A stretch of DNA of 35,166 nt from an uncultured Alphaproteobacteria bacterium (GTDB lineage Bacteria > Pseudomonadota > Alphaproteobacteria > CAAGCB01 > CAG-977), in NCBI GenBank assembly GCA_944392845.1, contig CALXYE010000095.1:1-35166 (forward strand), read 5' to 3'. Below, piece after piece: positions 9,139 through 15,251 of the stretch. Made by a program: the position numbers and the translations under genes. The notes below the pieces were generated by a model. It ran no database searches and had not been told where the DNA came from. It saw only the letters and a list, made by a program, of their open reading frames with translations. How positions within the stretch are numbered: position 1 is the first letter of the stretch; each line of letters starts with the position of its first letter.

Positions 9139-9272
9139 GGCGCGCCCGGCGGGATTGTTCGCTGCCCTCACCCCTCTTCGGGGGCCGCTCGACCCGAACG
9201 CGTCGTGTCTGCGCGTCGTTCGCTTCCGCTCTCCGACCCCACTCGCGGGCTCTCTTCCCGCTTGTCGGGCAC

Positions 9273-9298
9273 AAAAAAATCCCCTTTCAGGGGATTTT
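9273..9298 (-). terminator. Rho-independent terminator of tRNA-Arg(CCG)
   Basis: Immediately after the encoded CCA, the minus strand reads AAATCCCC TGAAA GGGGATTTTTTT: an 8-bp stem and a seven-T tail. Confidence 0.85.
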
Positions 9299-9374
9299 GG
9301 CGCGCCCGGCGGGATTCGAACCCACGACCCTCGGCTTCGGAGGCCGATACTCTATCCAACTGAGCTACGGGCGC
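9298..9374 (-). tRNA. tRNA-Arg (anticodon CCG)
   Basis: A 77-nt cloverleaf on the minus strand. The acceptor stem is GCGCCCG/CGGGCGC with discriminator G and an encoded CCA. The D arm reads GCTCAGTTGGATAGAGT, the anticodon loop is CTCCGAA (anticodon CCG), and the T arm is GTGGGTTCGAATCCCGC. It reads CGG arginine codons. A terminator follows directly, and then tandem copies of its 3' end. Confidence 0.95.
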
Positions 9375-14841: not shown

Positions 14842-14853
14842 CCCCCCCCCCCC
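14842..14853 (+). repeat. Poly-C tract (C12)
   Basis: Twelve consecutive C in an intergenic position between the GNAT terminator and the tRNA-Arg(CCT) repeat. Such runs are prone to slippage and to sequencing error. Confidence 0.9.
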
Positions 14854-14940
14854 TCCTTTTCCCTTTGTCCGCAACGGATCGTCGGATGAAGCGCGAACCC
14901 GAAGAGAGGGGGCGACTCCCCCGCCCGATACATAAACAAT

Positions 14941-14969
14941 AAAGCCTTCGGAAAAATCCGAAAGCTTTA
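14941..14969 (-). terminator. Copied hairpin in the outer tRNA-Arg(CCT) repeat
   Basis: AAAGCCTTCGG, a six-base loop and CCGAAAGCTTT. It has one base change relative to the hairpin just behind the tRNA, which leaves a single mismatch in the stem. Confidence 0.6.
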
Positions 14970-15140
14970 TGATGCGGTGTCCTCGGGGGGACCGCTAAGC
15001 GAAAACGGCAAAGGCGTTTTCGTCTGCAAGGTCGCTGATATCCCGATCCGTCAGGAAGCAAAGCCTTCCGCAACGGATCGGCGGATGAAGCGCAAACCCG
15101 AAGAAGAGGGTTCGACTCCCCCGTACGATACATAAACAAT

Positions 15141-15169
15141 AAAGCCTTCGGAAAAATCCGAAGGCTTTA
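15141..15169 (-). terminator. Hairpin terminator of tRNA-Arg(CCT)
   Basis: AAAGCCTTCGG (15141-15151), loop AAAAAT, CCGAAGGCTTT: an 11-bp stem a few bases after the CCA. The T tail (ATTGTTTATG on the minus strand) is weak. Confidence 0.65.
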
Positions 15170-15174
15170 TGATG

Positions 15175-15251
15175 TGGCGTCCTCGGGGGGAGTCGAACCC
15201 TCGACCCTCAGTTTAGGAAACTGATGCTCTATCCTGCTGAGCTACGAGGAC
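15175..15251 (-). tRNA. tRNA-Arg (anticodon CCT)
   Basis: A 77-nt cloverleaf. The acceptor stem is GTCCTCG/CGAGGAC with discriminator G and an encoded CCA. The D arm reads GCTCAGCAGGATAGAGC, the anticodon loop is TTCCTAA (anticodon CCT), and the T arm is GAGGGTTCGACTCCCC. It reads AGG arginine codons. A diverged copy of its 3' end lies 200 bp downstream. Confidence 0.95.

What the first reader, a model, noticed from the sequence alone, without database searches (positions are those of the whole stretch)
14871..15251. Second tRNA-Arg (CCT) also has a 3'-end tandem repeat, plus a 17-base copy of its T arm in inverted orientation
An independent roughly 200-bp repeat behind a different tRNA-Arg shows the same logic as the CCG gene: 3' end, terminator and spacer copied. 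In addition, 15106-15122 is perfectly complementary to the T arm at 15186-15202. In a readthrough transcript the trailer could pair with the tRNA T arm and block folding or processing. The element is kept perfect in the inner copy and degraded in the outer copy. Two cases in one window suggest a process specific to tRNA-Arg loci in this lineage, or integration/excision scars.
Basis: partly seen in the sequence, partly recalled or inferred. Interest (0 to 1): 0.62.

Follow-up and report, generated by a model that had tools for sequence, protein, structure and literature searches.

The report
RtT-like repeats behind many tRNA genes
The repeat and inverted T-arm behind this tRNA-Arg gene are one case of a widespread unit, a copy of the tRNA's own tail split open in its T loop by a cluster of hairpins, that sits behind at least 14 kinds of tRNA gene and is related to the RtT repeat known from E. 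coli's tRNA-Tyr operon.

Summary
In detail: tRNA-Arg(CCT) is followed by two ~200-nt units (92% alike), and 15106-15122 is a perfect 17-nt inverted copy of its T arm. The Arg-specific reading is wrong. Each unit has a fixed anatomy: terminator, inverted copy of the host tRNA's T arm/acceptor, then a direct copy of the tRNA 3' third split inside the T loop (GTTCG^AATC) by a 57-100 nt hairpin-rich insert. Such units occur behind 14 anticodons (Arg, Gly, Glu, Ser, Lys, Val, Pro, His, Tyr), in this family, in rumen Alphaproteobacteria and in a gammaproteobacterial-looking genome. A covariance model built only from units of this family finds all four RtT units of the E. coli tyrT-tyrV locus; Rfam's RtT model (RF00391) does not recognise the alphaproteobacterial ones. 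Helices covary strongly, yet G-U pairs are as rare as A-C, pointing to DNA-level palindromes more than RNA. Inserts pass between different tRNAs of one genome, stopping at the T loop, while arms stay host-specific. At Arg-CCT, 7 of 11 genomes have a unit, partial unit or remnant; 4 have none. It lies behind a terminator, so a required role in tRNA folding is unlikely. Origin and function remain inference.

The parts
15175..15251 (-). tRNA-Arg(CCT), T arm at 15186-15202
   Evidence: ARAGORN and Rfam tRNA 62.4 bits
15139..15170 (-). terminator hairpin 1, centre of the 97-bp imperfect palindrome
   Evidence: inverted repeat I4
15106..15129 (-). inverted arm of unit 1: inverted T arm (15106-15122, 17/17) plus degraded inverted acceptor strand (15123-15129)
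   Evidence: I2; sequence
15093..15100 (-). copy of the 5' half of the T arm (CGGGTTTG), predicted to pair with the inverted arm as a short hairpin
   Evidence: sequence; DNA fold
14993..15092 (-). T-loop insert of unit 1: about 100 nt, two strong hairpins, divergent from the family consensus
   Evidence: anatomy and fold; not recognised by model R2
14976..14992 (-). direct copy of the tRNA 3' end (3' half of T stem and acceptor strand, GTCCCCCCGAGGACACC)
   Evidence: D1
14939..14970 (-). terminator hairpin 2 (copy of terminator 1)
   Evidence: D1, I1
14868..14929 (-). unit 2, outer, truncated: degraded inverted arm (14906-14922, 88%) and start of the insert
   Evidence: D1, D2, I3
9298..9374 (-). 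tRNA-Arg(CCG), neighbouring gene with two recognised units
9151..9241 (-). unit 1 of the CCG gene: split T arm with insert, recognised by the model
   Evidence: R1 77.3 bits
8988..9079 (-). unit 2 of the CCG gene: split T arm with insert
   Evidence: R1 84.0 bits
8976..8993 (-). direct copy of the CCG tRNA 3' end closing unit 2; the inner copy is at 9139-9156
   Evidence: D3

Best explanation
The feature is an RtT-class tRNA trailer unit. Shown: the unit runs terminator, inverted copy of the host tRNA's T arm and acceptor, copy of the T-arm 5' half ending GTTCG, a hairpin-rich insert, then the T-arm 3' half, acceptor strand and CCA, often followed by a second terminator, and it can be tandemly repeated. 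Predicted: folded as a single strand, the inverted arm can pair with the unit's own split T-arm copy, with the insert hairpins branching out at the T loop. Inferred: it is mainly a DNA-level palindromic element. The insert spreads between tRNA trailers by gene conversion or T-loop-targeted insertion. The host-specific arms arise and are renewed by fold-back (template-switch) copying of the tRNA end around the terminator hairpin, and the units multiply by unequal recombination. It is tolerated because it sits behind the tRNA's terminator. Any effect on tRNA-Arg(CCT) would be limited to readthrough transcripts.
For: Model R1, built from nine units of this family, hits all four units of E. coli tyrT-tyrV and nothing else there (23.8 bits for the best, 14.5-16 for the others), and three of three units behind tRNA-Lys in G357 (34.2 bits each), which Rfam calls RtT at 77-82 bits. 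Of 55 family hits, those examined with enough upstream sequence lie on the same strand behind a tRNA, the first unit starting 57-84 nt after CCA; the rest sit near contig ends. Inverted arms match their own host best in 21/28 units and direct copies in 23/28, against 34 anticodons. Covariation: 153 double-changed cells against 46 in shuffles. Insert helices have 6 G-U and 8 A-C cells of 633, against 60 and 12 of 924 in tRNA stems and 27 and 11 of 740 in terminators. Inserts of Lys-CTT and Val-TAC in G004 are 94% alike and of Ser-GGA and Lys-TTT in G007 92%, the similarity ending at the T loop. Orthologous Arg-CCT loci are 7 occupied, 4 empty; inverted arms follow each tRNA even where the T arm changed.
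Against: The window's own CCT insert is too divergent for model R2; it is placed by anatomy, and by R2-recognised units at the orthologous gene in G001, G003 and G007. E. coli RtT is annotated as an RNA (rttR), and conserved junction sequence with tandem G-A pairs also fits an RNA. The G-U test against terminators alone is weak for the ratio (p 0.10) though not for the rate (p 0.001). Arg units cluster by host, as under vertical inheritance. No mobilising enzyme was found: IS200-type Y1 transposases are absent from G000, G005 and G009, which carry units.
Confidence: 0.6

Rival explanations
1. A structured RNA of the RtT type: made by readthrough, folded into an acceptor/T-stem-like helix with CCA, and processed from the tRNA precursor to act as a regulator or decoy.
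For: E. coli rttR is annotated as ncRNA; strong covariation; conserved tandem G-A step in a hairpin in 27 of 39 units and a tandem GA motif reported for RtT (PMC7657543); recurrent GATGAGAAC junction.
Against: In the alphaproteobacterial and G357 loci a terminator lies between tRNA and unit. G-U pairs are not favoured over A-C. Presence is polymorphic between relatives.
Confidence: 0.25
2. One reading: the inverted T arm is a regulatory element that captures the tRNA T arm in readthrough transcripts and blocks folding or processing.
For: Predicted in the minimum-energy fold; at Arg-CCT the inverted arm matches its own tRNA over 13-18 nt in five genomes; where tRNA and unit copy differ, the inverted arm follows the tRNA in 57 of 83 cells and the unit in 6.
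Against: Unit absent in 4 of 11 orthologues; it could act only past the terminator; for most other tRNAs two T-loop positions are systematically not complementary.
Confidence: 0.07
3. Scars of integrative elements whose attachment site is the tRNA 3' end, leaving tandem 3'-end copies.
For: The copies begin in the T loop and run to CCA, like TpsiC-type attachment sites (established knowledge); units are tandem and variable in number.
Against: The T arm is split by the insert instead of contiguous; terminators are copied too; host-specific inverted arms and a related insert recur behind 14 anticodons and in E. coli.
Confidence: 0.05
4. Plain tandem duplication of a tRNA end and terminator, with no special element.
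For: Tandem copies with 92% identity.
Against: The same insert family sits in the T-loop split behind unrelated tRNAs and in E. coli.
Confidence: 0.03

Closest known systems
RtT RNA (Rfam RF00391), 178-bp repeats of the E. coli tyrT-tyrV locus, rttR
   Same: Same anatomy: inverted arm GGGGAAGGATGAGAAGCTTCG, then AAGGTTCG, insert, AATCCTTCCCCCACCACCA, tandem; all four units hit by a model without E. coli in training.
   Different: E. coli has no terminator between tRNA and unit, and I know of RtT only behind tRNA-Tyr there; Rfam RtT does not recognise the alphaproteobacterial units even at relaxed thresholds.
TpsiC-loop tRNA attachment sites of tyrosine integrases
   Same: Boundary in the T loop, copy of the tRNA 3' end downstream.
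   Different: The copied T arm is interrupted by the insert; no island or integrase between the copies.
REP / IS200-IS605-derived palindromic elements
   Same: Short hairpins with stem mismatches, insert directly 3' of a fixed tetranucleotide (TTCG), no target duplication seen.
   Different: Behind tRNAs in one orientation; arms copied from the host; Y1 transposase absent in several genomes with units; IS200 ends unlike the insert.

Membership tests
RtT (RF00391) | reaches the Rfam gathering score (45 bits) | tested here: not met
   window and relatives: no RtT match at E up to 1; met only by the E. coli and G357 units
RtT (RF00391) | tandem repeat directly behind a tRNA, each unit ending in the tRNA 3' end | tested here: met
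RtT (RF00391) | sequence and structure relation of the insert to RtT units | tested here: met
   R1 without E. coli hits 4/4 E. coli units and 3/3 G357 units; R3 hits the window CCG units, the G357 units and one E. coli unit. For the CCT unit itself the relation was not detected
RtT (RF00391) | processed RNA released from the tRNA transcript | not testable with these tools
   no expression data
tRNA attachment site scars | unbroken tRNA 3' portion at the distal end, element with integrase between the copies | tested here: not met
   T arm split by the insert in the units; units of 120-200 nt are too short for an integrase gene
IS200/IS605- or REP-type elements | Y1 HUH transposase in the genome | tested here: not met
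   PF01797 not found in G000, G005, G009, which carry units

The most novel reading that the evidence does not exclude
A class of self-spreading palindromic DNA elements across Proteobacteria that home to the T loop of tRNA 3'-end copies and rebuild their arms from each new host tRNA, acting through a folded single-strand form; E. coli RtT would be one relic of it.
Probability: 0.3. Interest if true: 0.78.

Novelty: new variant of a known kind. Interest (0 to 1): 0.58.

Why it matters
RtT has stood as a curiosity of one E. coli operon. The data here make it one member of a class found behind 14 anticodons in two classes of bacteria, with arms copied from each host tRNA and a T-loop split that shows clearly only when many hosts are compared. 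This makes the origin of RtT testable, helps explain repeat-broken contigs at tRNA genes in such genomes, and offers a natural case of concerted change between a tRNA gene and a palindrome beside it.

Tried and rejected
Arg specificity: rejected by the survey of the genome's tRNAs and by relatives. A + strand tRNA facing the CCT gene: ARAGORN and Rfam find none. Known Rfam families: none in the window at gathering score except tRNA; weak matches only. HUH/IS200 mobilisation: Y1 transposases absent in G000, G005, G009; the copies near tRNA-Arg(ACG) in G007 and tRNA-Gly(CCC) in G001 look like ordinary IS200 inserted after terminators. Retroelement primer-binding-site reading: the inverted copy matches best in the T stem and decays toward the acceptor, the opposite of a primer-binding site. 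The phylum- and class-wide scans with R2 scored only the top 11-111 candidates per genome, so their near-absence of hits says little; the order scan around G357 found only G357. The comparison of inverted arm against unit copy had an offset fault in the direct-copy column and is not used. One search aligned the arm to the tRNA first and is biased; one search replaces it. Most non-proteobacterial matches of the pattern scan have no tRNA upstream and do not show this anatomy. Paper searches in the library found no description of such units beyond brief RtT mentions. E. coli K-12 could not be searched whole, so units behind other E. coli tRNAs were not looked for.

Full report
What is there. The minus-strand tRNA-Arg(CCT) gene (15251-15175) is followed by a terminator hairpin, a perfect 17-nt inverted copy of its T arm, about 100 nt of hairpins, a degraded direct copy of its 3' end, a second terminator and a second, truncated unit. 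The stretch 15106-15202 as a whole is a 97-bp imperfect palindrome centred on the terminator. The neighbouring tRNA-Arg(CCG) has two units of 162-163 nt.

Not Arg-specific. Of the 37 tRNA hits in the genome, Gly-CCC and Ser-GGA also have units and Val-CAC has an inverted-arm remnant. In the family (12 genomes held) units stand behind Arg-ACG, -CCG, -CCT and -TCT, Gly-CCC, Glu-TTC, Ser-GGA and -TGA, Lys-CTT and -TTT, and Val-TAC. A pattern scan of one genome per species led to rumen Alphaproteobacteria with a different insert behind Glu-TTC and Val-TAC. A model of that insert then found further units behind Pro-CGG, Lys-TTT, His-GTG and Tyr-GTA. That makes 14 anticodons.

Anatomy. In tRNA sense a unit reads: terminator; inverted T arm and acceptor; short loop; T-arm 5' half ending GTTCG; insert; AATC with the T-arm 3' half; acceptor strand; CCA; often a second terminator. 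The insert therefore splits a copy of the tRNA's 3' third inside the T loop. Host identity is written in the arms: the inverted arm fits its own tRNA best in 21 of 28 units and the direct copy in 23 of 28, against 34 anticodons. By position, the inverted arm matches its tRNA from two nucleotides before the T stem through TTC, fails at the next two loop positions (14-18%), and resumes in the 3' half of the stem. A frequent inverted loop reads GATGAGAAC, which would place tandem G-A pairs opposite the T loop.

Relation to RtT. E. coli tyrV is followed by units of the same anatomy. Model R1 was built from nine units of this family only. It hits all four units of the E. coli tyrT-tyrV locus, including one between tyrT and tyrV, and nothing else there (the scores, 14.5-23.8 bits, are modest, but all four fall on the right strand at the right places). 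It also hits three of three units behind tRNA-Lys in genome G357, which Rfam independently names RtT at 77-82 bits. Model R3, from the rumen units, hits the window's CCG units, the G357 units and one E. coli unit. An E. coli tRNA cluster used as control gave no hit. Rfam RtT itself finds none of the alphaproteobacterial units tested.

DNA or RNA. The insert helices covary strongly: 24 double-changed cells against 8.5 in shuffles, 153 against 46 in the larger set (that alignment was fitted to the structure). But G-U pairs, which RNA helices tolerate, are no commoner than A-C mismatches: 6 and 8 of 633 cells, against 60 and 12 of 924 in tRNA stems and 27 and 11 of 740 in the terminators behind the same tRNAs. 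This favours palindromes kept at the DNA level. Against that stand the annotated rttR RNA of E. coli and the recurrent unpaired junction.

Evolution. Units behind the same Arg tRNA resemble each other across genomes, as expected from descent. Yet Lys-CTT and Val-TAC of G004 share inserts 94% alike, and Ser-GGA and Lys-TTT of G007 92% alike, with similarity ending at the T loop. So inserts also pass between tRNA loci while the arms remain those of the host. At the orthologous Arg-CCT gene, 7 of 11 genomes have a unit, partial unit or remnant and 4 have none. Five keep a 13-18 nt exact inverted T arm, and in the window genome both the tRNA T arm (GAGGG..CCCCC instead of GTGAG..CTCGC) and the inverted arm differ from the relatives in the same way. 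The tRNA and its palindrome change together.

Folding of the readthrough RNA does put the tRNA T arm into the long hairpin, so the physical possibility is real. Because a terminator precedes the inverted arm, because the unit is absent in 4 of 11 genomes, and because most inverted copies mismatch the T loop, a conserved role in blocking tRNA folding is unlikely.

Limits. The CCT insert of the window is not recognised by model R2 and is assigned by anatomy and by recognised units at the orthologous locus. The genome is a 177-contig assembly in which repeats appear to break contigs, so copy numbers are lower bounds. Breadth outside the searched groups is unknown. Model E-values are rough. Older RtT work (Egan and Landy on the 178-bp repeat, Boesl and Kersten on the RNA) is cited from memory and was not found in the paper library.

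Noticed in passing
window 15175-15251: The T stem of tRNA-Arg(CCT) (GAGGG/CCCCC) carries an A-C mismatch and differs from the T arm shared by all ten relatives, as if it had been altered together with its palindrome.
   Followed up: partly
window 14842-14854; L083 and L095 near the direct copies: Runs of 10 or more C follow units or extend the copied T-stem CCCC, for example AATCCCCCCCCCCCTTGG behind tRNA-Glu.
   Followed up: no
L072 1-400 (G000:C23): A contig begins in the tail of a tRNA-Gly(CCC) and carries two units; several tRNA-bearing contigs of this assembly end at or near such arrays.
   Followed up: partly
L154 1316-1950; L096 1640-1857: IS200-type elements inserted just after the terminator of tRNA-Arg(ACG) in G007 and behind the tRNA-Gly(CCC) unit in G001.
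   Followed up: yes
L146 around 7062, L142, L145 and other Bacteroidota contigs: A palindrome of the form ATTGTGAGCGAAGCGAACAATC, with the same G-A-mismatched GAGC-GNA-GCGA hairpin, away from tRNA genes.
   Followed up: no
L071 1564-1695: An RtT unit lies between E. coli tyrT and tyrV in addition to the three downstream repeats (Rfam).
   Followed up: yes
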